Of a stretch of 28,899 bases of DNA, positions 1,311-28,871 are shown one piece after another. Within the stretch, counting starts at the first letter, position 1. Each line of letters opens with the position of its first letter. The translations under genes were made by a program, and so were the position numbers. Source of the stretch: a virus; the IMG/VR virus record IMGVR_UViG_3300034198_022305, positions 1 to 28,899 of that record. The stretch is one strand, 5' to 3'. Below the pieces are notes generated by a model that saw only the letters and a program-made list of their open reading frames with translations, had not been told where the DNA came from and did no database searches.

Positions 1311-3524
1311 TTATATCTGTAAAGCTAGACAACGCATATTTTTCATTATTGGAACAAGAATAGAATTATTAGTAACAGGCACAATTTTAACAGCAAATGT
1401 CTTGTATGAATCATATACACCATCTGTAGAAGTTGTATATCTTAAAATACCATTATTGTTTGCATATAAAAATGCACCAAATCTAGACTGAAGCCCTGGT
1501 ATATTACCAACCGTAGCATTAGCAGTTGAAAAAGTAGTATTAGATGATACAATCATAGTTGAATTATTCACAATAGAACTTACTTTTCTTACATTAAAAT
1601 GCGTAGTAGTATTTGCTATATAAATATATGTATTAACTGTATAGAATGAAGTATCAGCGACTTTTATTGTTGTATTGCTAAATGTATTAGCACCAGATGA
1701 GTCTACTGGTACACTAGAAGGAAGACCAAACTGAACTTCTACTGTATCATCTCTATTAATAGCTGAACTATATACTGCTGATGTTTGATCAAATTCAGCC
1801 ATTACTGACCAATCTTTAGAATTAAATGTATCAGTATCAGCTCCGTTTAGAAATTTACCATACACATTAAATTGTGTTCCGGCTGGTCTATATACAGTCA
1901 AATAACAATTTAAATCTTCAGCATCTTGTTTATCTGCTAATACTACATTTTTAGAAATATATCTAGAAGCACTGTAATAACCATTTTCAAGTGTTTCATC
2001 AAAATATGTTACTGTAGTAACGTTTGCTGAAGCTGTAGAAGTTGCACCAATTATATTAGTATTAAGTACAAATGCCGAATTTGCTGAATTAATTCGAACA
2101 TAGCTATTATTAGCTTCATCAATAATGCCGCCGACAGCTCCCTGAGTTACTGTTTCTCCTACCTGGAATTTACCAGTAGTATTAGCAATATTTAAATGAT
2201 AACCAGTAAGTTGTGTTTGTGCAGTTGCTTGATTATATGTAATAGTTACAGATGTACCAAGTCTATCAATGAAAGGTGCAGTTAGATTATTTGATGTGCT
2301 TAAATCAGCTTTTACAATTAGAGTATTGTTAGTGCCAATAGTAGCATTTGCTAAAGAATTACTTCGCGATAATAGAAGTCTTTCTGTATCAGTAAACTCA
2401 TTTGGCAATCCTGGAAGTGTAGTTATGGCTGAATCTTCTATCATACTATTAGAGTAACCTTTAAATGATACAGTAATAGCAGTTTGAGCTGGTCTAATGA
2501 AATTAATTTGTGGTGTTATACTATCATATTGCTTGTTTGCAATTGCAGCAATATTTGCTGATGCATTAGACTGAGTACCAAATATAAACTGATTAGCAGA
2601 CGTTGCAAAGTTAAGTGTTGTATTTGCGTTTGGACTTTCAATAATTAATTCAAGCTCTTCAAGCGGATAATACTGAGACTGAGTGCTTAATAGCCCGCTT
2701 AATGCACCATTACCAGCAATTCTACCAACTATGCAATTACTAGAAGTAAATGATATGTTTGAAGTAACTGTAAAAGCAGTAGTATTTGAAATTGCTGTAT
2801 TTACTTGTCTAAAATTAATTGTTGATCTATCTGTAGTAGCCACATAAATCCAGCAGTTTGCAGCAAATGTAGTTAGTGATGTATTTGGAACTCTTACAAT
2901 CGTAGAGTTTATAGTGGTATTTGCTCCTGTAATAGTATTGTTAGATATCCAGATTTTTTCTGTATTATAAAAAGTTCCAACAACATTATTAACTTTAATA
3001 AACTCAGTAGGAGTAGGTTTTAAATATACAGATGCTGATGATGAAGTAAAATTAGCAATATACATATCATACTTCATACTTTCAGTAATTACTGGTGTCC
3101 ATACTAAATCATTTGATGATATAAAGAGATTTCCAAGCTGATTATTAGTATATATCGGAGCTTGTGTATTTACATCAACACCACCTAATTCACCAGTCCA
3201 TACTTGATATTCATCATTGCCACCGTCTGGAATAAGTACGATTGCATATTGTACATTAGACTGAAGAAATGGTGGTGATACAAATGTAAATGTAGAGGCG
3301 GCAGTAGCTGAATCTGATGCTGTTACATTAGCAGCTTCTAATCTAGATATGCCGCCTGTAATTCTATTAGATGTAGGAAATCCATTATCTACTGTTCTAA
3401 TCTCTAATGTAATACCATATAAAGATGATACAGATTTAAAATAGACATTTATCTTAGTTAAAAAGATACCGTCTATTCCAGTATTAGGCTGGGATACTAA
3501 GAAAGTTTGAGCTATTGGTTTCAT
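1311..3524 (-). CDS. Virion structural protein, probable detached C-terminal half of the DUF4815 baseplate/fibre protein
   Basis: The 737-residue product opens with MKPIAQTFLVSQPNTGIDG followed by IFLTKINVYFKS and an EIRTVDNGFPT segment. From family knowledge, this 'PLAQTF...GvFlTkvdlfF...vEIRt..nGyP' region normally lies inside one very long marine T4-like structural protein, downstream of a DUF4815 domain. Here it is a separate gene directly after that protein. Around residues 430-500 there is a beta module (GKFQVGETVTQGAVGGI, then NNSYVRI) also found in gp8. The rest is Asn/Thr/Ser-rich and probably beta. A gap of 30 bases separates it from the preceding gene, with only a weak purine-rich stretch before the ATG. 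The likely location is the baseplate periphery or fibre base. The CDS is certain; the split origin is inferred. Confidence 0.85.
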   Translation of the reverse strand: MKPIAQTFLVSQPNTGIDGIFLTKINVYFKSVSSLYGITLEIRTVDNGFPTSNRITGGISRLEAANVTASDSATAASTFTFVSPPFLQSNVQYAIVLIPDGGNDEYQVWTGELGGVDVNTQAPIYTNNQLGNLFISSNDLVWTPVITESMKYDMYIANFTSSSASVYLKPTPTEFIKVNNVVGTFYNTEKIWISNNTITGANTTINSTIVRVPNTSLTTFAANCWIYVATTDRSTINFRQVNTAISNTTAFTVTSNISFTSSNCIVGRIAGNGALSGLLSTQSQYYPLEELELIIESPNANTTLNFATSANQFIFGTQSNASANIAAIANKQYDSITPQINFIRPAQTAITVSFKGYSNSMIEDSAITTLPGLPNEFTDTERLLLSRSNSLANATIGTNNTLIVKADLSTSNNLTAPFIDRLGTSVTITYNQATAQTQLTGYHLNIANTTGKFQVGETVTQGAVGGIIDEANNSYVRINSANSAFVLNTNIIGATSTASANVTTVTYFDETLENGYYSASRYISKNVVLADKQDAEDLNCYLTVYRPAGTQFNVYGKFLNGADTDTFNSKDWSVMAEFDQTSAVYSSAINRDDTVEVQFGLPSSVPVDSSGANTFSNTTIKVADTSFYTVNTYIYIANTTTHFNVRKVSSIVNNSTMIVSSNTTFSTANATVGNIPGLQSRFGAFLYANNNGILRYTTSTDGVYDSYKTFAVKIVPVTNNSILVPIMKNMRCLALQI

Positions 3525-3554
3525 TTAATTAATATCTTTTTAAAGGATTTAAAT

Positions 3555-6500
3555 TTAAGGGTTCCCATTACCTGAACCGCCGGCCGCGGCACCAGTGCCG
3601 CCATTATCAAATGCATTATAATAATATGGCGTATACCATATATATTCTTCAATGGGTGCTGGCGGAGGCGGTGGATAAGTAATAATTACTGGTGGACCCG
3701 ATACAACACCATTTGTCTGAATAGTTTGATTTTGTGTAACTTCATTAATTGCTACGGTTGCATTTCTTGTATTTAGTATAGAACTTCCATATGATATCGA
3801 TAATCCGCTTCCTGCATAAGTAGCTACTGCTTCAGTAGTTATAGCACTTTGTCCCTGAGTTAGATCTGATATATCTGTAAGTCTAAACTGAATATCTCCA
3901 GCTTTAAATGTTTCTGGTGGTATAGAAAATAATCCACGCACTGTTCCATCAGATTGTACAATTAAATTACTTGACCATGTATTGTTATTTAGTGTATAAT
4001 ATGAATATACAATACTGCCTGTAGCATCAGCAGTTTTAAGAGTATATAATACACTACCATCGGCAGCTTTATTAATATTATTTACATTTGTTACTACACC
4101 AGTATAAACAAATAACGGCATACAGAAACTACTAACTGCAGTGTCACCGAAGTATGGATATACTCTTGTATTTGGTCTTAGTCCTTTAGCAGAAAAGAAT
4201 ACTACTTTAGGCATAATATATGGCTTAATACTTATGTCAGTAACATAAGCGCCTAGATTTAAAGCACTGCTAGATTCTGTAAGACCAAGTTGTGTACCAG
4301 TCTTTGTTTGATTGGCAGTAGTTGTAGTATTTATCTGTGTCTGATATGCTGTTGTTGTTGAGCCATCAGCATTAGTTACAGAAGAAGAAATTCCGCCAGT
4401 TTGATAAGCACTTCCATATGCAGCACTTGAGCTAGTAGTTACCCAATTTCCCCAAGATGTTCCCCAGCCCTGTTGTGCTTCAAGATTAATCCAATTAGAT
4501 GCTAAATCAAGATTATTGACTATAGCTGGAGAAACTGTAGTATCAGGCTGTGTATCACCAGAAGGATATAGTGATATACTGCCTCTGAAGTTGTAGATAT
4601 TACCTTCAATACAGTTATGATACTTAGATGCATATGGCTGTTGCTGAAGTAATGTATCATCAGTATGATTTAAAGTAATTAGATGCCCGCGCTGTTTATA
4701 TCCAGTGCTAAGTGCTGTATCTACACTTAGATTTAAATTTAACTGTCTAAAGAATGGTCTAGCTTCCTGCCTATTTGGATCTATTGCGATTGAATATTGC
4801 GGATGTAAAGTATTACCAATATCATGACCTCTAAATGGATCTACAAGAATACCATTCTTAAATCTATTTTGTCCTGATGTGCCACTTCTTACAAGAAGAT
4901 TAGTTGCTGATTGTTCAAGAAGAGAAAGTGAAGTATAATATTCTAGATTATCTATTCTATTTGAAAGCGTACCAATATCTGCCATTGTATAACGCTTAAT
5001 CTGAGATAGATTAATTGTAGTGGCATAGTCATATCTATTATAGGTTTTAGCACCTACTGCAGATAGTGTAGGATATGGAGGTACATCAACAATACCAAGA
5101 GACATTGTTCCGGGAATCTCAATAGGCGCGCGAGGTGAAGGATTTGATAATCCTTCTGTTATTAATAGTTGTCCGCCAGTAGTTACAGAAACTCTATCTC
5201 TGCGTGGTAGATAGTGTTCTAAATCAGCTCTTATTCCTTTATTTGGTGAAATTATATATGCACCTAAAGATCCAGGAATACTTGAATCTGGAGTACCAGA
5301 AAATGTAACTGTAGTACTTGGATTAATTGTTGCAGTTGCAATTACTGATGTAGATGTTGATGTATTAGCAGCATATGGACGGAAATCGATACAATCTCTA
5401 AGATCGAAAGTCGATCCCTTAGATGGCGAGAAGAATAAAGGTATTTCAGCTGTATTGATTGCGTCTGTATTAGCAACATTTACATCATCTATTGGATATG
5501 AATTAGCTGTAAAGAATCCCACACCATAAGTCTGATCATGTTGAAAGTGATCAACAGATATTAAAATAGTACTATCTACTGGTAAAGATGTAACTTTCGA
5601 CTTAAGATATGCTAAATCATAATGCGAGTCGCGCTGTCCATTATCTAATGAAAATGAATTTACTAAGTTTATTGTAGTATTAGAATAAGTACTATTTGGA
5701 GAAATCCATACACCATTAACCTTTAATACATCAGTAACACCAAGACACCATGGTCCTGCTGTACCGCTTATATGTGTATTAGTTTGAATCTTTATAAATT
5801 TATTTCTTTTAATTGATTTTTGTATTGGAGTAACGGCTGCACTATATTTTTCACTATCATAATATACTTTAACCGTCATGGTAGTTGTACTACCGATATT
5901 TAAATTAGCAGCAGTGCCAGATGTCTTAATTTCAATAGATCTATTTGATCTATTGAATGGAATAGGTAATCCAGCAGGAAATGCTAATCTATTATTAGCT
6001 GTAGTATTTGCTGTAGTGCAATTACCTTGAACAGTCATATATGTAGAATTAGTAACAGCTGTAATTGATTTTAAATCATGTGGAGTAAGACCACCAATGG
6101 CAATTACATCGCCCGCTTTATAATAAGTAGGAAAATCTGTAGTTGTTCCTACAATAATATTAGAAGTAGTATTGCATGAAACAGTACCAGGATTAAAAGA
6201 TGATACCGGAGAATAACCAGTCGAAGTTGGTATAACATTAAATGTAGAAGCTTGAACTTGACTTAATATACCATCACTTAATTCATAAAATCTTTCACCG
6301 GTTGGAACAGAAAATGCAGCAGTTGAACCTGCAGTAAAAGTAATAGTATCTGATCTATTTCTATATGGAAATGATGTTACATTAACCGAATTAGTCTTTA
6401 CTGCTTTCTGGCCAAAAGAATATATCATTGTATTATTAACAATTTCTTGTAGTTGTGCTGTATAAGAGCTAGTTCTACTATCATAAGTTAATACTACATC

Positions 6501-7949
6501 AGCTACGGCTGTTATTGAACCAGCAGACATAATACTTCTAACTGAACTAAAATTAAAGCCAGGACTCATTTGTATATTAAACAAATATAGAATATATTCT
6601 GCATTATATGCGCCTGGAGTTCCAGAAGAATATTCTATACCTCTAATATATGCTGTACCAATTTTAGTAGCAGAACTATATGATGTAGAAAGAAATGTAC
6701 CACTACTAATAGCTGTTTTTGCTACAGAATGGAGTTCTACTTGTACAAGATTATCAATATTGAAATCACCGACAAATTCTTTACCATAGATATAATATCC
6801 AAAATTAGCTGATACATATTGATCAGTAAAGCTTTGAGTATCTTTACCTTTTCTTAGATCGACTGCATTTCTATTAAGAAATTCTACTCTATGTCCTTTG
6901 ACATATGCCAAACCAGGTGATGATATTAAGCTTAAATAATCGGAATTAGATGTAGTATTAGATGAATCTGTATTAGCTTTTTTGTTTTCAGTTGTAAGTA
7001 AGAATGGATTAACTACAAAATCGCCATTAGTTTCAAATGTTCTTCTAGCAAGTTCAGTTCCAAGCGCAGCATATTGTGGATCATTTTTAATAGTAACTGG
7101 ACGGCCTGAATTAAAATCACAGATAGAAAAGAATGTTTCAGTATTTGAAATATCAGAAGTTGTCTTAACAATCAAATTAGGTGTTAACTTTAGACGATGT
7201 GCACCAGGAGCGCCATAATTTGGTGTATCAGCAGCATTATCATATAGAGCTGTATTAGAAGCTGGTGTTTCAATTGTTTCTTCTACACCAAAACCAACTG
7301 AATAGTTATTAGGAGTATTTGAATATTTCGAAACAACTACTGACTGAGCTGGAACTCTTACAAAATAACCTTTTTTGAATATAATGCCATCAGTTACAGA
7401 CATGGAATAGCCATAACCAACAGCATTACCAAAACTGCCACCAGAATTTGCTACAGTAACATTGCCAATGGCTACATTGGCCGTAGTAGAAATTACTAGA
7501 TTTTCAGTTGAATCAAATGTTGATTGTATTGCACCATTTGTATAAGTACCAGAATTTATGTATTTGATATACAGTGTATTTAATTCAGGTGCTTGAGAAA
7601 TGTATCCTTGAACACTATCTACAATAATTGCAGTAAGATTGCTGCTGGATTTTATAATCCTACCATTAAAGTCTTCAATAGTAAAAGCAGAACCATTTGC
7701 ATAATTATCATTAATTTTTACATATGAATATTGATTATCAAATGTAAAAGCACAACCTTCTAAAACCGATCCTTCTTTATATATGCTTTTACCGAATTTG
7801 TTAAGTTGATCTTGCAGTATACTTTGAGCAGCATTCATTTCGCGTGCTTGAACAGGCACACCAGGTCTAAACAATACGGCATACTGGTTTGAATTAGAAT
7901 TATAGTCGTCGAAGTATGGACTGCGTGATAGATCCGTGTCTAAAGTCAT
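3555..7949 (-). CDS. DUF4815-type baseplate/tail-fibre structural protein
   Basis: The 1464-residue product has a clear DUF4815-type N-terminus: SPYFDDY, then YAVLFRPGVPVQAREMNAAQ, SILQDQLNKFG and YKEGSVLEGCAF within residues 10-70. Family members are large structural proteins of marine and other T4-like phages at the position of the T4 gp9-gp12 fibre/baseplate genes. Around residue 1255 is GLRPNTRVYPYFGD, a conserved segment before the C-terminal part. The tail carries a proline run (PPPPPAP) and a Gly/Ala-rich end (GGTGAAAGGSGNGNP) encoded by a GC-rich patch at 3567-3603 that stands out in this AT-rich genome. The start is supported by GAGG seven bases upstream of the ATG, 8 bases after the gp8 stop. 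It is probably the platform linking wedge to fibres; the exact T4 counterpart is unclear. Confidence 0.85.
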   Translation of the reverse strand: MTLDTDLSRSPYFDDYNSNSNQYAVLFRPGVPVQAREMNAAQSILQDQLNKFGKSIYKEGSVLEGCAFTFDNQYSYVKINDNYANGSAFTIEDFNGRIIKSSSNLTAIIVDSVQGYISQAPELNTLYIKYINSGTYTNGAIQSTFDSTENLVISTTANVAIGNVTVANSGGSFGNAVGYGYSMSVTDGIIFKKGYFVRVPAQSVVVSKYSNTPNNYSVGFGVEETIETPASNTALYDNAADTPNYGAPGAHRLKLTPNLIVKTTSDISNTETFFSICDFNSGRPVTIKNDPQYAALGTELARRTFETNGDFVVNPFLLTTENKKANTDSSNTTSNSDYLSLISSPGLAYVKGHRVEFLNRNAVDLRKGKDTQSFTDQYVSANFGYYIYGKEFVGDFNIDNLVQVELHSVAKTAISSGTFLSTSYSSATKIGTAYIRGIEYSSGTPGAYNAEYILYLFNIQMSPGFNFSSVRSIMSAGSITAVADVVLTYDSRTSSYTAQLQEIVNNTMIYSFGQKAVKTNSVNVTSFPYRNRSDTITFTAGSTAAFSVPTGERFYELSDGILSQVQASTFNVIPTSTGYSPVSSFNPGTVSCNTTSNIIVGTTTDFPTYYKAGDVIAIGGLTPHDLKSITAVTNSTYMTVQGNCTTANTTANNRLAFPAGLPIPFNRSNRSIEIKTSGTAANLNIGSTTTMTVKVYYDSEKYSAAVTPIQKSIKRNKFIKIQTNTHISGTAGPWCLGVTDVLKVNGVWISPNSTYSNTTINLVNSFSLDNGQRDSHYDLAYLKSKVTSLPVDSTILISVDHFQHDQTYGVGFFTANSYPIDDVNVANTDAINTAEIPLFFSPSKGSTFDLRDCIDFRPYAANTSTSTSVIATATINPSTTVTFSGTPDSSIPGSLGAYIISPNKGIRADLEHYLPRRDRVSVTTGGQLLITEGLSNPSPRAPIEIPGTMSLGIVDVPPYPTLSAVGAKTYNRYDYATTINLSQIKRYTMADIGTLSNRIDNLEYYTSLSLLEQSATNLLVRSGTSGQNRFKNGILVDPFRGHDIGNTLHPQYSIAIDPNRQEARPFFRQLNLNLSVDTALSTGYKQRGHLITLNHTDDTLLQQQPYASKYHNCIEGNIYNFRGSISLYPSGDTQPDTTVSPAIVNNLDLASNWINLEAQQGWGTSWGNWVTTSSSAAYGSAYQTGGISSSVTNADGSTTTAYQTQINTTTTANQTKTGTQLGLTESSSALNLGAYVTDISIKPYIMPKVVFFSAKGLRPNTRVYPYFGDTAVSSFCMPLFVYTGVVTNVNNINKAADGSVLYTLKTADATGSIVYSYYTLNNNTWSSNLIVQSDGTVRGLFSIPPETFKAGDIQFRLTDISDLTQGQSAITTEAVATYAGSGLSISYGSSILNTRNATVAINEVTQNQTIQTNGVVSGPPVIITYPPPPPAPIEEYIWYTPYYYNAFDNGGTGAAAGGSGNGNP

Positions 7950-16487: not shown

Positions 16488-17495
16488 CTATGGAGTAGGA
16501 ACTTTAGGCGGCTGTTTTACACTAGATGTACTAGTAACACCATTTGTATAAGTGTATATATGATTATTAGTATAAACATATCCAACACCATACGTATCCC
16601 ATGCATTCCATGAAATTGCGTGTGTCGAAATAGTATTTGCAAAAGTATCAATAAATTTACCACTAATTTTAAGTTCACCGCCCATTGGCGGTGTGGCACC
16701 AGCTTCTAATTGTGCAACAGTTATAGCTGGATCTGAACCAGCAGATCTTATAGCTATAAATGTATTGCCATGAATATAAGTAGATCCAAGTTTACTAATT
16801 ACTTTTGTTTGCTCTTTATTTGAAAATAGTGTAGCTCTATTTTCTCCATAGATAATTATATTTTCAGCAGCTTGTGCCTGTATATCACCATTAAGTGATT
16901 CTATAAGAAGTAAGTCTTTAGACTTTATGGTAGTATTACCGGCTAAAGCACCAGCTACAAAGTTAACTTTTCCAATTGAAAACATATTTTCATTGGCTAT
17001 AAAGCTAGAATCTTTACCAGACTGCGAGCCGATTCTGCCTTCACATAAAATATTATAATCTTTTTTTACTACAAGATTATAACTACCGCCAATTGTCTGT
17101 GTCATATTTCCTTTAACTTCAAGATGCGCATCGCCACCCACCACAATACGGGCCGCACCGCCAATTTTAATATCACCATTTTTTTCAATAGTTATAGTAG
17201 TACTTTGTTTTACTATCTTACTGTCATTGGCTGTAACTACTTCTACTTTACGACCATCCTGCGAGACTTCAGTATAAGATCCAGACTTATGAGCAAAGCG
17301 CATTCTTTCATTACCAGGCGTGTCATCAAGCTGAATTTCATGCCCGGCACGGGTTACCTGAGTATAGTTATATGGATATTCAGATGCATAAGTAGTTCCT
17401 GGCGAGCGTGTATTAGCTGCCGATGGTGATGATAGAATTTTTGTCTTACCGGTGAATAGGCCGGTTATAGTATCAAATATAGGAACATTTACCAT
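16488..17495 (-). CDS. Baseplate central needle, gp5 C-terminal beta-helix-like protein
   Basis: The 335-residue product matches the spike part of gp5/VgrG proteins. Residues 30-80 carry the conserved run YPYNYTQVTRAGHEIQLDDT followed by ERMRFAHKSGSYTEVSQDGR. Residues 95-150 hold alternating beta strands (ITIEKNGDIKIGGAARIVVG, then DAHLEVKGNMTQTIGGSYNL) as in the trimeric beta-helix that pierces the outer membrane. In T4 this forms the C-terminal third of gp5; here it is its own gene. Its ATG overlaps the stop of the gp5-like hub gene by one base (TAATG), so the two are made together and probably assemble as one trimeric spike. The last 40 residues (Tyr/Thr/Asn-rich, ending KQPPKVPTP) are unlike a beta-helix and may form the tip. 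Confidence 0.88.
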   Translation of the reverse strand: MVNVPIFDTITGLFTGKTKILSSPSAANTRSPGTTYASEYPYNYTQVTRAGHEIQLDDTPGNERMRFAHKSGSYTEVSQDGRKVEVVTANDSKIVKQSTTITIEKNGDIKIGGAARIVVGGDAHLEVKGNMTQTIGGSYNLVVKKDYNILCEGRIGSQSGKDSSFIANENMFSIGKVNFVAGALAGNTTIKSKDLLLIESLNGDIQAQAAENIIIYGENRATLFSNKEQTKVISKLGSTYIHGNTFIAIRSAGSDPAITVAQLEAGATPPMGGELKISGKFIDTFANTISTHAISWNAWDTYGVGYVYTNNHIYTYTNGVTSTSSVKQPPKVPTP

Positions 17496-19108
17496 TATAC
17501 TCTACCAAAGTTTACATTAATATCTGTTGCAGTAGCTCTTTCTTGTGTCAAAATTTGATTCATAATATTAAGATTTTCAGTCTCTGAATCAACATAAGTT
17601 TGCTGATTTTCACCGACCAATACTTGAGCTTCTGTTACGCCTGAATCAGAAGAAATAAGTGCTGATGGATCAGCACTGCCAACACGCGGAGTAGGTGGTT
17701 TAGTAGAAGGAGCAGGCGTAGTAGCTGCTTCTGAATCTGTAGTAGTGCTTTGTTCAGGAACAGGTGGTGCATCTCCCGTAATTAAATTAAGAGTATCAGA
17801 CTTTAATTTACCTAACATTTGATCTTTAATAAAATCTGCTATATCTGGAACAGTCATGGATGCACCAAATGAAGATATAGATTCAGCTATATTAATAATA
17901 TTTTTTACACCATTTATGGTATTATAAAGTCCAGGTACTAATGTTGCTGCTATATCAGAAAGTTGATTCAAATTTGATAATGAAGTACCAAATAGCATAT
18001 TTAGTCCTCCAAGTTGTACAGCATTTATAACTGAATTTAAACCTGATACAATACTATTTGCACTTATTAAGCTTTGGCCGGCAGCTGATAAAAATGAATT
18101 TACTGCTAAATCACTTAATAAAGATTGTCCTGCTACAATTCCTCCCGGTATACTTGCTAAAGAATCTATCCCACCAAGAGATCCAAGCTGAGAAATAGTA
18201 GATATAGCCGAAAGTTGATTCATTAAATTGTTAGAAGAATCGGCAAAAGAAGAACTAGAAGATAAAGAACTTAACATTGATGGGTTAAATGACGGAGCAG
18301 ATAAAGAAGTTAAAGGATTAGCAGTTCCGCTTTGAAATGTGTTTGATATATTACTTAAAGCTTGATTAGTAGCTTGTAAGACATTTGGTGATAAAGAAGT
18401 TGGATCTATTGAATTTAAAAGTGAAAACGTTTTGTCTATGCCTATAGTACTCATTAAAGATGATAGCCCTCGAGTTATACTCGATGCTCCAATATCTACC
18501 AAACCAGCAGCTGTACTAAATGCGTCTATTGCTTGCAATTTACTAATTGCTATAACTGCTCCATTAAGAGAACCTGACATATTTGATGGATCTAATTGCA
18601 TTATAGTAGAAATAATATTAGTTGGTATAGATGATAATACACCAACACCAGCTGATAATGAAGCAAACTTAGATCCAGCTATAGCCAATGCAGTTAAGTT
18701 TTTACCACCTAAAGCTGCATTCAAATCTTGACCACGAGCAGCATTTGCCATATCATTCGTAGTAGAATCGATTGTGTACGATCCATCAACAATTTGCCCA
18801 GTTTTAGTTGTACCAGCAGACTGCAAAGTTCCTGTTGTTATTAATATAGTTCTTTCTGAATCTGCAAAATAGCCATCTACTATAGTTCCAACAACAGCAC
18901 CAACCGGCGAACTACCAACACCGAGAAGAGAAGCTCCCCATTGACTTCTTGGTATTGCCCATGGCAATTCACTATCTGGTATTAAAGATTGATTATCATG
19001 TAGACCAAATAAACGGACTTGAAGACGACCTTGTTGCTTTGGATCCATAACATTTACTACACGACCACGCCATCTTGTTCCACTATAGTCTGATGTTCTA
19101 TCTAACAT
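17495..19108 (-). CDS. 5: gp5-like baseplate hub protein (OB-fold, no lysozyme domain seen)
   Basis: The 537-residue product starts with a gp5 OB-fold domain (residues 8-110): TRWRGRVVNVMDPKQQGRLQ, VRLFGLHD, LPWAIPRSQ, then VGAVVGTIVDGYFADSERTI. T4 gp5 continues with a lysozyme domain and a beta-helix. Neither is recognisable here. Instead residues 140-430 are rich in Ser, Leu, Ile and Ala and look helical (for example LSSLSSSSSFADSSNNLMNQ, then SLGGIDSLASIPGG), followed by a Pro/Thr-rich linker (TTPAPSTKPPTPR) and a short C-terminal segment. The needle is the next gene, overlapping by one base. AAAGGA at 19118-19123, nine bases before the ATG, supports the start. Preceded by gp27, its usual hub partner. 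The role of the middle region is unknown. Confidence 0.85.
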   Translation of the reverse strand: MLDRTSDYSGTRWRGRVVNVMDPKQQGRLQVRLFGLHDNQSLIPDSELPWAIPRSQWGASLLGVGSSPVGAVVGTIVDGYFADSERTILITTGTLQSAGTTKTGQIVDGSYTIDSTTNDMANAARGQDLNAALGGKNLTALAIAGSKFASLSAGVGVLSSIPTNIISTIMQLDPSNMSGSLNGAVIAISKLQAIDAFSTAAGLVDIGASSITRGLSSLMSTIGIDKTFSLLNSIDPTSLSPNVLQATNQALSNISNTFQSGTANPLTSLSAPSFNPSMLSSLSSSSSFADSSNNLMNQLSAISTISQLGSLGGIDSLASIPGGIVAGQSLLSDLAVNSFLSAAGQSLISANSIVSGLNSVINAVQLGGLNMLFGTSLSNLNQLSDIAATLVPGLYNTINGVKNIINIAESISSFGASMTVPDIADFIKDQMLGKLKSDTLNLITGDAPPVPEQSTTTDSEAATTPAPSTKPPTPRVGSADPSALISSDSGVTEAQVLVGENQQTYVDSETENLNIMNQILTQERATATDINVNFGRV

Positions 19109-24191: not shown

Positions 24192-24902
24192 ATGACATTA
24201 CCTAAAATACAGCATCCAACGTTTAGAATTATCGTTCCATCTACTAAGAAACAGTTATTGTTTAGACCATTTCTGGTAAGAGAAGAAAAGATTCTTCTTA
24301 TGGCTAAAGCCGGAGAAGATTCAACTGATATCTTATCTGCGGTAAAACAAGTTGTAAACAACTGTTGTGAAGAAAAAAACTTTAATATTAATAAGCTAAC
24401 TATATTTGATATTGAATATATTTTTCTGAAGATTAGAGCTAACTCTGTAAGTAATAAAGTAAATCTTACATTTAAAGACTTAGAAGATGAAAAAGAATAT
24501 GCATTTGAAGTAGATTTAAATGCAGTGGAAGTGGAATATCCAAAAAATACTGATAATAGAATAGCTATTGATGAAAAGATGGGTATTTTAATGAAGTATC
24601 CAAGTGCATCAATATACGACGACAAAGACTTTATGAAGCTTGGAAAAGATTCTCTCTTTGAATTAATCATTAGATGTATTGATAAGATCTATAATAATGA
24701 TGAGATGTTTGATTCATCAAGTTATACGCGCGAAGAAATAATAGAATTCTTAGATAATATGAACGTTAATACATTTGAAAAGATACAACGGTTTATTACT
24801 GACTCGCCAACAATGAAGCATGTACTTAATTATAAGAATTCGCTTGGAAATGACCGCAAGATTGAGCTAACGACTCTAACAGATTTTTTTACATTGCGCT
24901 GA
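24192..24902 (+). CDS. 26: Baseplate hub assembly protein gp26-like
   Basis: The 236-residue product fits the T4_baseplate (gp26) family: LPKIQHPTFRIIVPSTKKQL, LFRPFLVREEKILLMAKAGE, DILSAVKQVVNNCC, LTIFDIEYIFLKIRANSVSN, then LTFKDLEDEKEYAFEVDLN. T4 gp26 (208 residues) is needed for hub assembly and is sometimes counted as a chaperone. The zero-frame protein ends DFFTLR. Just before the end lies a run of seven T that allows a -1 shift into a further 61 codons (see the slippery site), so two products are likely: 236 and about 294 residues. Short/long pairs of this kind are typical of tail assembly chaperones encoded before a tape-measure gene. Confidence 0.88.
   Translation: MTLPKIQHPTFRIIVPSTKKQLLFRPFLVREEKILLMAKAGEDSTDILSAVKQVVNNCCEEKNFNINKLTIFDIEYIFLKIRANSVSNKVNLTFKDLEDEKEYAFEVDLNAVEVEYPKNTDNRIAIDEKMGILMKYPSASIYDDKDFMKLGKDSLFELIIRCIDKIYNNDEMFDSSSYTREEIIEFLDNMNVNTFEKIQRFITDSPTMKHVLNYKNSLGNDRKIELTTLTDFFTLR
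24884..24890 (+). other. Candidate -1 programmed ribosomal frameshift site (T TTT TTT)
   Basis: In the gp26 frame the codons are GAT TTT TTT ACA, giving the heptamer T TTT TTT in the phase required for simultaneous -1 slippage. After the shift translation reads TTT TTT TAC ATT GCG CTG and continues for 61 codons to TAA at 25073-25075. The zero-frame stop is only ten bases downstream of the run. No strong downstream stem was found by eye. Confidence 0.7.
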
Positions 24903-25075
24903 GCCATAATACTCTAGAGAATTATTATAAGACTATATTTGGCTTGGCTCAGCATCATAAATACAGTATTAATGATTTAGAAAATATTATACCATTTGAA
25001 TTAGATATATATGTAAATATGTTGAAAGAATACATCCGTGAGCAAGAAGAAAAACAAAGAAATAGCGGAATGTAA
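24890..25075 (+). CDS. -1 frame extension of gp26 (tail-chaperone-like second domain)
   Basis: This frame encodes 61 residues when entered by a -1 shift: YIALSHNTLENYYKTIFGLA, QHHKYSINDLENIIPFELDI, YVNMLKEYIREQEEKQRNSG and M. The composition is that of a real helical protein, and the 'LenyYk..f.laQhHKYSi.dLEnm.PfE.diYv..L..yi.E' pattern resembles the small protein after gp26 in other marine T4-like phages, as I recall; those are sometimes labelled gp51, though T4 gp51 is longer. The frame is closed upstream by TGA at 24863 and has no ATG until 25019, so independent initiation would need CTG, ATT or TTG without a Shine-Dalgarno sequence. The stop overlaps the start of the next gene (TAATG), showing that ribosomes are expected to reach it. 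Confidence 0.75.
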   Translation, partial: YIALSHNTLENYYKTIFGLAQHHKYSINDLENIIPFELDIYVNMLKEYIREQEEKQRNSGM

Positions 25076-27879
25076 TGAAAAAAAGACGCAGCAGTAAATC
25101 AAAAACTAAACAATCAGATAATTTTAATACAGAAAGTGGTGTATTAAAATTTGTTGATAATGCGTCTGATGATAAGAAATCACCAAACCCAACGGACAAA
25201 CGACAGTCTGCAGATATCGTTGATATACGTAAATATGCTCAAGAAAAAAGCAATGGCGCAACCGGTGGCGCACTTAAGCAATTAGATCCAATTATTCGTA
25301 AAATAAGCAGCGAATCTAAAAAAACTGATAGTGATATTGCTGCAACTAAAAAAATTCTTAATATTAATGTTTTATCAATAAAGCGCGTATCTGCAGCTGT
25401 AAGCGTGTTAGAAACGCGCCTAGGAGATTTAACAGAGCAGCACAATAAAACTCTTGGAATGCTAGGCGATTTAATCTCTAAATTTGATGAATTCAAGAAA
25501 GAAACAAAAAAAGAATTTGAAAAAATAAACAAAGAGTCTAGTAATTCAGGCAGTGACCGCGGTATCGGCATATTAGATACTATAAGTGATATAGTAGATA
25601 TAGCATCTAATAAAGGAGACAAAAAACCAAAAGCAAATGCAAATGCTGCTAAAGTACCAGCAAAAGCAACAACTGTAGCAAGCGGAGCATTAAAGTCTCT
25701 GGGATCAGCTGCTAAACTTGGTGCAAAAACGCTTCCAGCAGTAGGCGGATTGGTTAGTGGTATAACTGAGTACATGGAAGGCGGCGACTTGGGTCGCGCA
25801 ATTGCATCTGGTGCAGGTACTATTCTTGGTGGGATACTAGGCGGAGTTCTTGGTTCCGCTCTTGGACCAGTTGGTACAGCAGCGGGTGGCATTGCTGGAT
25901 CTATGGCTGGTGAAGAATTAGCTAAATCTGGCTACGACTGGATTTTTGGTAAAAAGAAACCGGTAGAATCTGACACAATAAAGAAAGCGCGTGAAGATCG
26001 AGAAAAATCGAGTGATTCTAAGTCTGGTACATCAGTATCTTCTCCATCTCCTGGCATGACAACAACGTCTGCTGGCATGACAACAACGTCTGCTGGCACA
26101 GACCAAAAGCCATCGGCAACTAACACCAGTGGTGGTGGAGGCCCAAGCACAGGCGCTGTAGGAAACATGGCTACGTTGAATGCAGCAATGGATGAAATGA
26201 ATTTCACTGGAGATAGTCAGCGTGCTGGTCTAGCTGCAATTACAGTTGGTGAAAGTGGATTCCAATCAATTGCTGAAAATATGAATTATAGCGCAGCCCG
26301 AGCCCAAGAAATATTTAAGTACCAGCCTGCAGGCGGCTGGGAAGCTATCACATCAAAAGGTCCTGAAGCCGTCGCCGAAGAAGTATATGGATATAAAACT
26401 AAAAACAAAGGCGCGCAAGGTTTGGGAAATGATCAGCCAGGTGATGGCTGGAAATATCGAGGACGCGGTTTTATTCAAATTACAGGAAAATCTAATTATG
26501 CAGCAATCAGCAAAGCTATTGGAGTTGATTTAATAGCTGATCCTGACGCAATGTTAGACCCTAAAATTGCAGCAAAAGCAGCAATTGCTTTCATGCAGCA
26601 ACGTGGTTCGCCTGCAAATTTTGAAGATCAATTACGTGCTGTGGCTGGTAGCCGAGACAGCTGGTCCAAAAAGCGTGATACTTACAAAAAGTTTATGGAA
26701 GAAGGAACGTTTAAACTTGGCTCTGGCAAAAATAATCAGCAGACAGCTGCTTCTGGAAGCAGCGATGCAACAGCCACAGCTGTAGCTACTCCACCTACAA
26801 TGGCGCCAGAGGGCACTTCAGCGCCAAATGCTGTACCTGTAGAAAAAGGTGTAGCAATGCCTGGAGAAACATTTAATAAACCAGTTGCAGGGGCTGGCAA
26901 AGATTATAGTCAAGGCGGCGCTCAAGGTGCTTCAGGCACTCCAGGTACTCCAGGTACTCCAGGTACTCCAGGTACTCCAGGTACTCCAGGTATTCCAGGT
27001 ATTCCAGGTACTCCAGGTACTCCAGGTGTCAATAAAGGTATGGCTGAAAAACTGTCATCAATTGAATCTAGTTTTGGCAAGCTCGATGTGTCCAGCGGTT
27101 ACAGAGATCCAGCACAGAATAAAAGAGTAGGCGGCGCTAAAGATTCAGCTCATACGAGAGCAAATGCTGTAGATGTCACCTTTAGCGGTGATGAGGTTAA
27201 AACATTAAAACTTGTAGAGATTGCATCTAAAGCTGGCATCGGTGGAATAGGTGTATACAAACCTGGTTTTGTGCATTTAGATACAGAAAGTCGTAGAGTG
27301 TGGGGTCCAGATTATACTTCAAATTCAATTCCTAAGTGGGCTGCAGGTGCTTTACAAGCGCACATGTCTGGTCAAATGGGACAATATGATGCAACCGCGG
27401 CTAGAACAAAATCTGAGACTTCTGAGACAGGCGGTGCTGCAGGTGCAAGCGGTTCAGCAGCATCACTTGAAGGCAGTCTTGCTGAATTAAAGACTGGTTT
27501 GGGAAATATTGGTGGTATAAATTCAAAGGGAATGGGTGCAACATCACGTGGTATGTCTTCATCTGTACAAACTTCTAAAGCACAGATTCCTGGACCGCTG
27601 GGAATGGCTGGTACTCCAGGATTAGGACAGAATGCTGGTCTATTAAGCAATTTAATAGGCGGCGGCTCAATACCTCAATCTCCAATGGATATGGTTAGCA
27701 TGTTTGGAAGTCTTGTTAATGCTATAAATAAACAAGACAGTAATACACGTGCATCAAACCCAACATTTGCGCGAGACGCGTATCAAAATAATAATGTTCC
27801 ACCAGCTCTACCTTCGCAGAAGATACTCAGCGAATTATTTGGTATGAATACAGCACCAGATTATAATCCAGCAGGATAA
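25075..27879 (+). CDS. Multidomain virion cell-wall hydrolase: coiled coil, glycine zipper, GH19, collagen-like linker, M15 peptidase
   Basis: The 934-residue product appears to have this order. Residues 1-70 are basic and charged. Residues 75-165 look like coiled coil. Residues 215-285 are a Gly/Ala-rich hydrophobic stretch (AIASGAGTILGGILGGVLGS) that could insert in a membrane. Residues 365-550 are a GH19 lysozyme/chitinase-like domain: VGESGFQSIAENMNYSAARA with E393 a likely catalytic acid, then GDGWKYRGRGFIQITGKSNY. Residues 615-650 are twelve Gly-X-Y triplets. Residues 657-770 are an M15-type zinc peptidase: SSGYRDP, SAHTRANAVDVTF (H693, D700) and GFVHLD (H734, D736). The remainder is Gly/Ser/Ala-rich. 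It follows the gp26 frameshift cassette with a TAATG overlap, the place where other phages keep the tape measure. Most likely it cuts peptidoglycan during entry. No signal peptide is seen, and endolysin use is less likely. Confidence 0.85.
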   Translation: MKKRRSSKSKTKQSDNFNTESGVLKFVDNASDDKKSPNPTDKRQSADIVDIRKYAQEKSNGATGGALKQLDPIIRKISSESKKTDSDIAATKKILNINVLSIKRVSAAVSVLETRLGDLTEQHNKTLGMLGDLISKFDEFKKETKKEFEKINKESSNSGSDRGIGILDTISDIVDIASNKGDKKPKANANAAKVPAKATTVASGALKSLGSAAKLGAKTLPAVGGLVSGITEYMEGGDLGRAIASGAGTILGGILGGVLGSALGPVGTAAGGIAGSMAGEELAKSGYDWIFGKKKPVESDTIKKAREDREKSSDSKSGTSVSSPSPGMTTTSAGMTTTSAGTDQKPSATNTSGGGGPSTGAVGNMATLNAAMDEMNFTGDSQRAGLAAITVGESGFQSIAENMNYSAARAQEIFKYQPAGGWEAITSKGPEAVAEEVYGYKTKNKGAQGLGNDQPGDGWKYRGRGFIQITGKSNYAAISKAIGVDLIADPDAMLDPKIAAKAAIAFMQQRGSPANFEDQLRAVAGSRDSWSKKRDTYKKFMEEGTFKLGSGKNNQQTAASGSSDATATAVATPPTMAPEGTSAPNAVPVEKGVAMPGETFNKPVAGAGKDYSQGGAQGASGTPGTPGTPGTPGTPGTPGIPGIPGTPGTPGVNKGMAEKLSSIESSFGKLDVSSGYRDPAQNKRVGGAKDSAHTRANAVDVTFSGDEVKTLKLVEIASKAGIGGIGVYKPGFVHLDTESRRVWGPDYTSNSIPKWAAGALQAHMSGQMGQYDATAARTKSETSETGGAAGASGSAASLEGSLAELKTGLGNIGGINSKGMGATSRGMSSSVQTSKAQIPGPLGMAGTPGLGQNAGLLSNLIGGGSIPQSPMDMVSMFGSLVNAINKQDSNTRASNPTFARDAYQNNNVPPALPSQKILSELFGMNTAPDYNPAG
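26053..26094 (+). repeat. Two identical 21-bp direct repeats in the linker before the GH19 domain
   Basis: The unit GGCATGACAACAACGTCTGC plus a final T occurs twice in tandem at 26053-26073 and 26074-26094 and encodes GMTTTSA twice. It lies in a Ser/Thr/Gly-rich linker between the glycine-zipper part and the GH19 domain. Perfect identity suggests a recent duplication. Confidence 0.9.
26941..27030 (+). repeat. 9-bp tandem array encoding collagen-like Gly-X-Y repeats
   Basis: Ten tandem copies of a 9-bp unit: five CCAGGTACT, two CCAGGTATT, two CCAGGTACT and one degenerate CCAGGTGTC. Together with the preceding codons they encode GAQ GAS (GTP)6 (GIP)2 (GTP)2, twelve Gly-X-Y triplets. The unit length is a multiple of three, so copy number can change without breaking the frame. 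Confidence 0.95.
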
Positions 27880-27908
27880 AAAAAAGGCCAGATTAATCTG
27901 GCCCTTTT
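27880..27908. terminator. Bidirectional rho-independent terminator between convergent genes
   Basis: The perfect palindrome GGCCAGATTAATCTGGCC (27886-27903) is flanked by an A run on the left and CTTTT on the right, so each strand ends with a GC-rich stem followed by a U-rich tail. It lies between the hydrolase stop codon (27877-27879) and the gp32 stop codon (27914-27916) and can serve both transcripts. Confidence 0.88.
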
Positions 27909-27913
27909 CTATT

Positions 27914-28804
27914 TTAGGAAGCTAACTTCCGGAAGAAATTAAGATCATCATCTTCTTCGCTTGCTTCATCCATTACCGGAGATGGAGCAACACGCGATCT
28001 TGACTGTGGAGGAGCAATAGTATCTTCCTGCTCCATAACATTTGAAGTGCGTCCTTCCATAGGAGTTGAAAGTACGCGGGTTAGCTTTTCCTTAAGCTCT
28101 TCATATGTCTTAAAGTTAGACGGCTTCAAGAATTCCTGTAGTGAGTATTCCTGTGAGTGAATCATCTCTAGCTTACTATCATCCTTATGAAGTACTGAAA
28201 GATTCATAAAAGCTGACTTATCATAGTTGCGATATCCTTCAACATTACGAATCTTAAGTGCAAGATTTGCACCTTCCCAGAAGTCAAATGGATTTAGCGG
28301 CTTCTCATCGGGAAACTGAGGATTCATAACCTCATTCAACTTATCAAAGATCTTCTTACCATACTTGAATAGAAAAACCTTACCATTATTCTCTGGATTT
28401 CCATGATCTTCAACGACATAGATATTAGAGATAAAGTGAAGACGACGCTTCTGCTTACGTGCAGTATCCTTATCAGACTCTACACCAGAATTCCAAAGAG
28501 CCGAATTTACTTCACTAACTGGATCTTTCTGTCCAATTGTAGTAAGAGAGTTTTCAATATACCAAGAACCAGATGGACCCTTAAAACCATGATCAAAGAT
28601 ACGTACAAAGGGAACTTCTTCATCTCCCGGTGCAGGAAGAAACCTAATGACTGCATAACCATTGCCAACCTTATCTACAGTTGGTGTCCAAAATCGCTCG
28701 TCATTCTTGCGCTCATACTTAGCATTAAGCTTCTCAAGCTCTGATGTCAGAGCCGAAAGTGACTGTTCACCGCGCATTGCCTTAAGCCGTGCAAAATCTA
28801 CCAT
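27914..28804 (-). CDS. 32: Single-stranded DNA binding protein gp32
   Basis: The 296-residue product (T4 gp32: 301) shows the gp32 core: RFWTPTVDKVGNGYAVIRFL, HGFKGPSGSWYIENSLTTIG, QKDPVSEVNSALWNSGVESD, RRLHFISNIYVVEDHGNPEN, GKVFLFKYGKKIFDKLNEVM. The acidic tail ending EDDDLNFFRKLAS is the part that contacts partner replication proteins. It coats ssDNA in replication, recombination and repair. The start is placed at ATG 28804, with GGAG at 28812-28815 seven bases upstream; an in-frame ATG at 28870 lies next to the promoter and lacks a ribosome binding site. The protein has no cysteine at all, so the T4 zinc ribbon is absent. It is transcribed toward the baseplate genes but stopped by the palindromic terminator. 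Confidence 0.95.
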   Translation of the reverse strand: MVDFARLKAMRGEQSLSALTSELEKLNAKYERKNDERFWTPTVDKVGNGYAVIRFLPAPGDEEVPFVRIFDHGFKGPSGSWYIENSLTTIGQKDPVSEVNSALWNSGVESDKDTARKQKRRLHFISNIYVVEDHGNPENNGKVFLFKYGKKIFDKLNEVMNPQFPDEKPLNPFDFWEGANLALKIRNVEGYRNYDKSAFMNLSVLHKDDSKLEMIHSQEYSLQEFLKPSNFKTYEELKEKLTRVLSTPMEGRTSNVMEQEDTIAPPQSRSRVAPSPVMDEASEEDDDLNFFRKLAS

Positions 28805-28811
28805 TTTATTT

Positions 28812-28815
28812 CTCC
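28812..28815 (-). promoter_or_regulatory. gp32 ribosome binding site
   Basis: The minus strand reads GGAG followed by AAATAAA and the ATG at 28804. This spacing decides the start over the longer in-frame ATG at 28870. Confidence 0.8.
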
Positions 28816-28852
28816 GTATTAATGTGTATTGTTGTATTGAACATATTTTCTT

Positions 28853-28867
28853 AGGACAGCGTGTCCT
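28853..28867 (-). promoter_or_regulatory. Hairpin at the 5' end of the gp32 leader, possible autoregulatory element
   Basis: The minus strand reads AGGACA CGC TGTCCT, a six-pair stem with a three-base loop, at the expected 5' end of the late transcript. It is followed by about 48 bases low in G (28852 down to 28805, AAGAAAATATGTTCAATACA and so on) reaching the Shine-Dalgarno site. In T4 a structured element upstream of an unstructured A/U-rich leader is where gp32 binds and blocks its own translation. Confidence 0.5.
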
Positions 28868-28871
28868 CAAT

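What the first reader, a model, noticed from the sequence alone, without database searches (positions are those of the whole stretch)
25075..27879. One virion protein with two different predicted peptidoglycan cutters joined by a collagen-like rod
Seen: GH19-like motifs (GESGFQ...NMNYS, GDGWKYRGRGFIQITG) at residues 365-550 and M15-like zinc ligands (H693, D700, H734) at 657-770, with twelve Gly-X-Y triplets between. Upstream are a coiled coil and a Gly-zipper hydrophobic stretch. Known: GH19 cleaves the glycan and M15 peptidases cleave peptide stems. Inference: a tethered pair that opens the wall and perhaps forms a membrane channel during injection, replacing T4 gp5 lysozyme.
Basis: partly seen in the sequence, partly recalled or inferred. 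Interest (0 to 1): 0.8.

Follow-up and report, generated by a model that had tools for sequence, protein, structure and literature searches.

The report
Two-enzyme phage tail lysin, swappable cassette
A T4-type phage carries, in the tape-measure gene position of its tail, one protein with two predicted wall-cutting enzymes (one for the sugar chains, one for the peptide links), and comparison with relatives shows that the sugar-cutting half is swapped as a cassette between otherwise nearly identical phages.

Summary
Window 25075-27879 encodes 934 aa. A GH19 domain (~358-545) and an M15_3 metallopeptidase domain (~653-760) both pass Pfam cut-offs. Both catalytic glutamates (E393, E401) and the zinc ligands (H693, D700, H734) are invariant in the relatives aligned, and the predicted folds match phage GH19 endolysins (Z 17-20) and M15 enzymes (Z ~6). 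The collagen-like stretch is real (13 Gly-X-Y), but it is a 9-bp tandem repeat that the closest relatives lack. A membrane channel is unsupported.

This phage's gp5 is split and has no recognisable lysozyme; Caulobacter phage Cr30 is the reverse, with lysozyme in gp5 and a lysin-free slot. (2) The glycan cutter is a swappable cassette: a phage with 98%-identical gp32 has Phage_lysozyme2 there instead, while a distant scaffold has this GH19 at 70% identity. (3) About eleven relatives carry a glycan cutter followed by a peptidase/amidase, always in that order.

Dual virion lysins are known in Gram-positive phages, so this is a new variant of a known kind. By-product: 85 of 85 loci show a -1 frameshift signature fusing gp26 to gp51.

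The parts
25075..27879 (+). slot protein: predicted two-enzyme virion-associated lysin, 934 aa
25327..25539 (+). predicted long helix / coiled coil, residues 85-155
   Evidence: low-confidence AlphaFold helix
25777..25950 (+). Gly-zipper hydrophobic stretch, residues 235-292
   Evidence: resembles stretches in relatives' slot proteins
26097..26791 (+). exchanged glycan-cutter cassette (segment with no DNA match to L003; shared with L102 over 26131-26724)
   Evidence: blastn; segment identities
26146..26709 (+). GH19 domain, residues 358-545; catalytic E393 (26251-26253) and E401 (26275-26277)
26792..26891 (+). conserved inter-enzyme linker (NAVPVEKG motif), a recombination joint
26917..27033 (+). 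collagen-like spacer, 13 Gly-X-Y triplets, 9-bp tandem repeat (26921-27027)
   Evidence: absent in L003
27031..27354 (+). M15_3 metallopeptidase domain, residues 653-760; ligands H693, D700, H734
27355..27876 (+). conserved C-terminal tail, candidate anchor
   Evidence: 69% identical to L003, 39-40% to L011 and L102
24186..24902 (+). gp26-like T4_baseplate protein (tail chaperone)
   Evidence: PF12322 E 7e-54
24884..25075 (+). slippery T TTT TTT (24884-24890) and -1 frame gp51-like extension ending at the TAA of 25073-25075
17495..19108 (-). gp5 OB protein with no lysozyme hit
16488..17495 (-). gp5 trimer_C beta-helix protein
27914..28870 (-). gp32 ssDNA-binding protein, neighbour

Best explanation
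It is a virion-associated peptidoglycan hydrolase with two catalytic domains, encoded in the tape-measure/hub slot of a T4-superfamily myovirus whose gp5 spike has no recognisable lysozyme. The constant scaffold (N-terminal coil plus hydrophobic stretch, and C-terminal tail) would hold the protein in the tail hub or lumen. When the tail contracts, GH19 cuts the glycan strands and M15 cuts peptide stems or cross-links, opening a local hole for the tube. The glycan cutter lies in an exchangeable cassette bounded by flexible linkers, so phages replace it by recombination while keeping the scaffold. Shown here: domains, conserved active-site residues, folds, gene position, gp5 without a lysozyme hit, cassette exchange. 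Inferred: presence in the virion, catalytic activity, bonds cut, timing.
For: Both domains above Pfam cut-offs; catalytic residues invariant; folds match phage GH19 lysins (Z 16.6-20) and M15 enzymes (Z 5.7-6.5); T4-type tail module around it; same slot annotated tape measure in Cr30 and phiM12; window gp5 has no lysozyme hit while Cr30 gp5 has one; 2x2 of scaffold and cassette; other slot proteins carry other wall-cutting domains.
Against: No experimental evidence of virion presence or activity. The M15 match by fold is moderate and no PDB match was found by sequence. The insert of about 430 residues in the OB protein has no annotation, so a divergent enzyme there cannot be excluded. Host and its wall chemistry are unknown.
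Confidence: 0.78

Rival explanations
1. It is the actual tape measure protein of this phage, fixing tail length, with two lysin domains fused on; entry lysis is secondary.
For: It lies directly after the chaperone pair gp26/gp51, as tape measures usually do; slot neighbours are annotated tape measure in Cr30 and phiM12; relative L011 matches a tape-measure PHROG over residues 85-458, E 5e-36.
Against: Little predicted long helix (85-155; 199-290; low confidence); slot proteins in the clade range from about 330 to over 1800 aa with large disordered linkers, which is odd for a ruler; no other ruler candidate was sought outside the window.
Confidence: 0.3
2. One or both domains no longer cut and serve only to bind peptidoglycan.
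For: No activity data exist; the GH19 motif here lacks the His seen in some endolysins (VGESG here, GHESG in SPN1S).
Against: Both GH19 glutamates and all M15 ligands are invariant, and replacement is by other catalytic families, not by binding domains.
Confidence: 0.12
3. It forms a trimer with a collagen rod and a membrane channel for DNA passage.
For: Gly-zipper and collagen-like triplets exist; tape-measure proteins of some phages act at membranes (T5 pb2 and HK97, cited in PMC6116005).
Against: The collagen spacer is absent in the orthologue with 75-88% identical flanks. The hydrophobic stretch is weak and not universal. No structural support.
Confidence: 0.15

Closest known systems
HydH5 of Staphylococcus phage phiIPLA88 (PMC3150257)
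   Same: Virion protein with two active peptidoglycan-cutting domains, CHAP and LYZ2.
   Different: Gram-positive host, siphovirus, other enzyme families, reverse order (peptidase first), no known cassette exchange.
T4 gp5 tail lysozyme, and Cr30 gp5 (OB + Phage_lysozyme2 + trimer_C)
   Same: Entry lysozyme of a T4-superfamily contractile tail.
   Different: One enzyme, inside the spike protein; here two enzymes in another gene while gp5 has no lysozyme hit.
TseP, T6SS effector (PMC11893102; structure 8xcl)
   Same: One protein with amidase and lysozyme; its lysozyme domain matches our GH19 at Z 17.7.
   Different: Bacterial effector carried by VgrG; amidase first; not in a phage.
Tape-measure-borne lysins and domain shuffling (enterococcal survey PMC10194240; protein mosaicism PMC10684548; TM4 and T5 cited in PMC6116005)
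   Same: Lysins in tape-measure proteins; shuffling of lysin domains.
   Different: Not this T4-superfamily slot, nor the paired glycosidase-then-peptidase layout with independent replacement; in the enterococcal survey lytic transglycosylases and endopeptidases are described in separate tail proteins.
PHROG 1047 'tail associated lysin'
   Same: Matches residues 121-330 (E 4e-8).
   Different: The match covers only the coil and Gly-zipper part, not the enzymes.

Membership tests
GH19 (phage endolysin type) | Pfam PF00182 above curated cut-off | tested here: met
   35.7 bits against 25.5
GH19 (phage endolysin type) | Two catalytic glutamates | tested here: met
   E393 and E401 invariant in 31 of 31
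GH19 (phage endolysin type) | GH19 lysozyme fold | tested here: met
   Z 16.6-20 to phage GH19 lysins, pLDDT mostly above 90
GH19 (phage endolysin type) | Glycan hydrolysis | not testable with these tools
   needs enzyme assay
Peptidase M15 (M15_3) | Pfam PF08291 above curated cut-off | tested here: met
   50.2 bits against 23.2
Peptidase M15 (M15_3) | Zinc ligands H, D, H | tested here: met
   H693, D700, H734 invariant in 6 of 6
Peptidase M15 (M15_3) | M15 fold with intact active-site geometry | tested here: inconclusive
   Z 5.7-6.5 to 1lbu, Ply500, LysB4, LysECD7; distances not measurable
Virion-associated peptidoglycan hydrolase | Wall-hydrolase domain in a tail-module gene | tested here: met
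Virion-associated peptidoglycan hydrolase | Present in the particle | not testable with these tools
   needs virion mass spectrometry
Tape measure protein | Gene next to the tail chaperone pair | tested here: met
Tape measure protein | Length of helical ruler matches tail length | tested here: inconclusive
   full-length model poor; tail length unknown
T4 gp5 hub lysozyme | OB domain and beta-helix in the same protein as the lysozyme | tested here: not met
   P0001 has neither; gp5 parts are separate ORFs
Collagen-like rod | Pfam Collagen above cut-off | tested here: not met
   20.4 bits against 27.2, although 13 perfect Gly-X-Y triplets are present

The most novel reading that the evidence does not exclude
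T4-superfamily phages of this clade keep a two-socket tail lysin: a fixed scaffold with a glycan-cutter socket followed by a peptide-cutter socket, each filled from unrelated enzyme families (GH19, Phage_lysozyme2, transglycosylase, SLT, VgrG3-type muramidase; then M15_3, VanY-like M15 or CHAP) and exchanged independently, after the entry lysozyme left gp5.
Probability: 0.55. Interest if true: 0.65.

Novelty: new variant of a known kind. Interest (0 to 1): 0.5.

Why it matters
A 2018 review states that virion lysins with endopeptidase activity are found almost exclusively in phages of Gram-positive bacteria (PMC6116005). T4-superfamily phages, whose known hosts are Gram-negative (established knowledge), with paired glycan and peptide cutters in one tail protein would widen that picture. 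The natural 2x2 of scaffolds and cassettes shows where recombination joints work in an entry lysin and makes it testable whether enzyme choice follows host wall chemistry. It also explains how a T4-type tail can do without lysozyme in gp5.

Tried and rejected
(1) tblastn of the N-terminal 362 aa against 50,697 phage records: no match; the scaffold is not seen among isolates. (2) Scans of viral contigs with the whole protein or N part gave only two relatives with the same scaffold, L002/L003; L009 is a separate short GH19 endolysin gene, set aside. (3) PDB sequence searches for the M15 domains and for L012 found nothing, and L016 gave only weak helical matches. (4) Full-length AlphaFold with 4 sequences: mean pLDDT 36, not used for conclusions. 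(5) L049 matched the GH19 seed, but its alignment lacked the first glutamate, so it was left out of A9. (6) Chimeric assembly considered: L002 and L003 come from two samples with the same architecture, and the window's GH19 cassette recurs at 70% in a third contig (L102), so misassembly is unlikely. (7) Active-site distances could not be measured, since model coordinates are not in the script box. (8) The M15-like assignment of the second domain in L012 and L016 rests on motifs (SxHxxGxAxD-type followed by H) and, for L012, on a tape-measure PHROG match; Pfam did not reach it. For L011/L102 it rests on hhalign (E 7e-7, probability 92%, over 56 columns only) and VanY E 2e-4 in L102, below that family's cut-off.

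Full report
OBSERVATION. Pfam gives GH19 (E 1e-8) and Peptidase_M15_3 (E 3e-13), both above curated cut-offs, and a sub-threshold Collagen match; PHROGs gives endolysin for residues 365-512 (E 6e-37) and peptidase/endolysin families for the M15 part. phmmer against the PDB finds phage GH19 endolysins. An AlphaFold model of residues 356-775, built on 37 aligned window and viral-contig sequences, has the GH19 part mostly above pLDDT 90, the M15 part mostly 77-88, and an unstructured linker. The GH19 part matches phage GH19 lysins at Z 16.6-20; the M15 part matches the zinc DD-peptidase 1lbu (Z 6.5), Ply500 and LysB4 (6.1) and LysECD7 (5.7). E393 and E401 are invariant in all 31 GH19 rows with residues there, and H693, D700, H734 and D736 in all 6 M15 rows.

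CONTEXT. The neighbours are a T4-type tail module: gp53, gp48/54-like cap, gp4, gp2, a tube protein, a gp26-like T4_baseplate protein, then our gene, then gp32 on the other strand. In Caulobacter phage Cr30 and Sinorhizobium phage phiM12 the corresponding slot after gp26-gp51 (and a small gene) holds a 562-567 aa protein annotated as, or similar to, a tape measure, with no lysin domain by Pfam. gp5 in the window is two ORFs, an OB protein and a beta-helix protein, and neither has a lysozyme hit. Cr30 gp5 has the classic layout OB + Phage_lysozyme2 + trimer_C; phiM12 gp5 has no lysozyme hit and an M15_3 protein is encoded next to it. The inference is that the entry enzyme has changed gene within the T4 superfamily, with gp5 and this slot as alternative homes.

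CASSETTE EXCHANGE. The closest relatives (L002/L003; for L003 gp26 is 90% and gp32 98% identical) keep the N part (75%), the M15 (88%) and the C tail (69%), but carry Phage_lysozyme2 (PF18013, E 1e-27) in place of GH19 and lack the collagen spacer. At DNA level identity is 86.5% up to 26096, without a match across the cassette, 81% over the linker 26792-26891, without a match across the collagen repeat, and 86.5% again from 27025. A more distant scaffold exists in two versions: L102 with a GH19 70% identical to ours, and L011 with a Phage_lysozyme2 60% identical to that of L003, although their N part, second enzyme and C tail are only 24-40% identical to the window and L003. L102 and L011 share a VanY-like M15 (78%; hhalign to our M15 E 7e-7 over 56 columns; VanY E 2e-4) and a C tail (64%). 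These four proteins form a natural 2x2 of scaffold and glycan cutter, which is hard to explain except by recombination at the linkers.

GENERALITY. A scan with a gp26 alignment gave 80 loci. Where enough sequence follows, a large slot protein begins about 140-650 bp after gp26. Among 53 slot proteins Pfam finds Phage_lysozyme2 in 6, GH19 in 4, Phage_lysozyme in 3, SLT_3, SLT, M23, CHAP and M15_3 in 2 each, and VgrG3-type muramidase, M15_4, VanY, Hydrolase_2, transglycosylase and DPBB in 1 each. A scan with the M15 domain added L095-L097, where M15_3 is paired with a Hydrolase_2-like domain (sub-threshold), a Transglycosylas domain (just sub-threshold) and Phage_lysozyme2 respectively. Including L018 and L019 (CHAP second; L018's first domain is SLT-like by eye only) and L012 and L016 (M15-like motif second), about eleven slot proteins carry a glycan cutter followed by a peptide cutter, always in that order. 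They share ancestry, so the order is not eleven independent events, and several assignments are weak (see Tried and rejected). Many slot proteins further away show one enzyme or none.

MECHANISM. Most likely (0.78) the scaffold holds the two enzymes in the tail hub or lumen. After contraction they act together on one small patch of wall: GH19 on glycan strands, M15 on stems or cross-links, joined by linkers long enough for each to reach its bond. Position, domains, intact motifs, gp5 without a lysozyme hit and exchange are shown by sequence; virion presence, activity and timing are inferred. The collagen-like spacer looks like a young 9-bp repeat expansion and is not essential. Some other slot proteins have their own Gly-X-Y runs, so spacing may matter while the rod chemistry does not. 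The membrane-channel idea remains open but weak.

COMPARISON. Dual virion lysins are known in Staphylococcus phages (HydH5, both domains active), and a dual amidase-lysozyme T6SS effector, TseP, has a lysozyme domain related in fold. Domain shuffling of phage lysins is documented in general. A 2018 review states that endopeptidase-type virion lysins are found almost exclusively in phages of Gram-positive bacteria. I found no description of the paired, exchangeable arrangement in the T4 superfamily among the open-access papers searched, but most subscription papers were not searchable. Verdict: new variant of a known kind.

BY-PRODUCT. In 85 of 85 loci tested, gp26 ends with T TTT TTT or T TTT TTC in frame 7-16 nt before its stop, and the -1 frame runs into a conserved ~55-residue gp51. 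In the window and its closest relatives this frame has no usable start codon before the conserved part. The same heptamer class occurs at 112 of 19,208 other gp26 codon sites. This is the lambda G/GT pattern. T4 itself has genes 26 and 51 on opposite strands. A 2022 paper cited in PMC10885494 proposes a mechanism other than frameshifting for this pair in T4-like phages; the clades here look different. I could not read that paper, which may already mention them.

Noticed in passing
window 24884-25075 +; same site in 85 loci (most of L003-L090 and L095-L097): Programmed -1 frameshift signature (T TTT TTT/C) just before the gp26 stop, leading into a conserved gp51-like frame that often lacks a start codon; looks like the lambda G/GT tail chaperone pair. 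T4 has the two genes on opposite strands.
   Followed up: partly
window 17495-19108 -: The gp5 OB protein carries about 430 residues after the OB domain, rich in Ser, Leu, Ile and Asn, with no Pfam match. Function unknown; possible tube or hub filler.
   Followed up: no
window 1311-7949 -: PHROG 358 (2056 positions, unknown function) is matched by two adjacent ORFs of 1464 and 737 aa, so this large tail-module protein is split in two here.
   Followed up: no
window 27886-27903: Hairpin GGCCAGATTAATCTGGCC between the convergent slot gene and gp32, a likely shared terminator.
   Followed up: no
L098:1008-5588: A 1526-aa ORF with the same M15_3 family near its C-terminus; long low-complexity body, no glycan cutter seen by eye.
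   Followed up: no
window 26047-26098 +: A second short tandem repeat (21 bp x 2.5) lies right at the upstream cassette joint.
   Followed up: no
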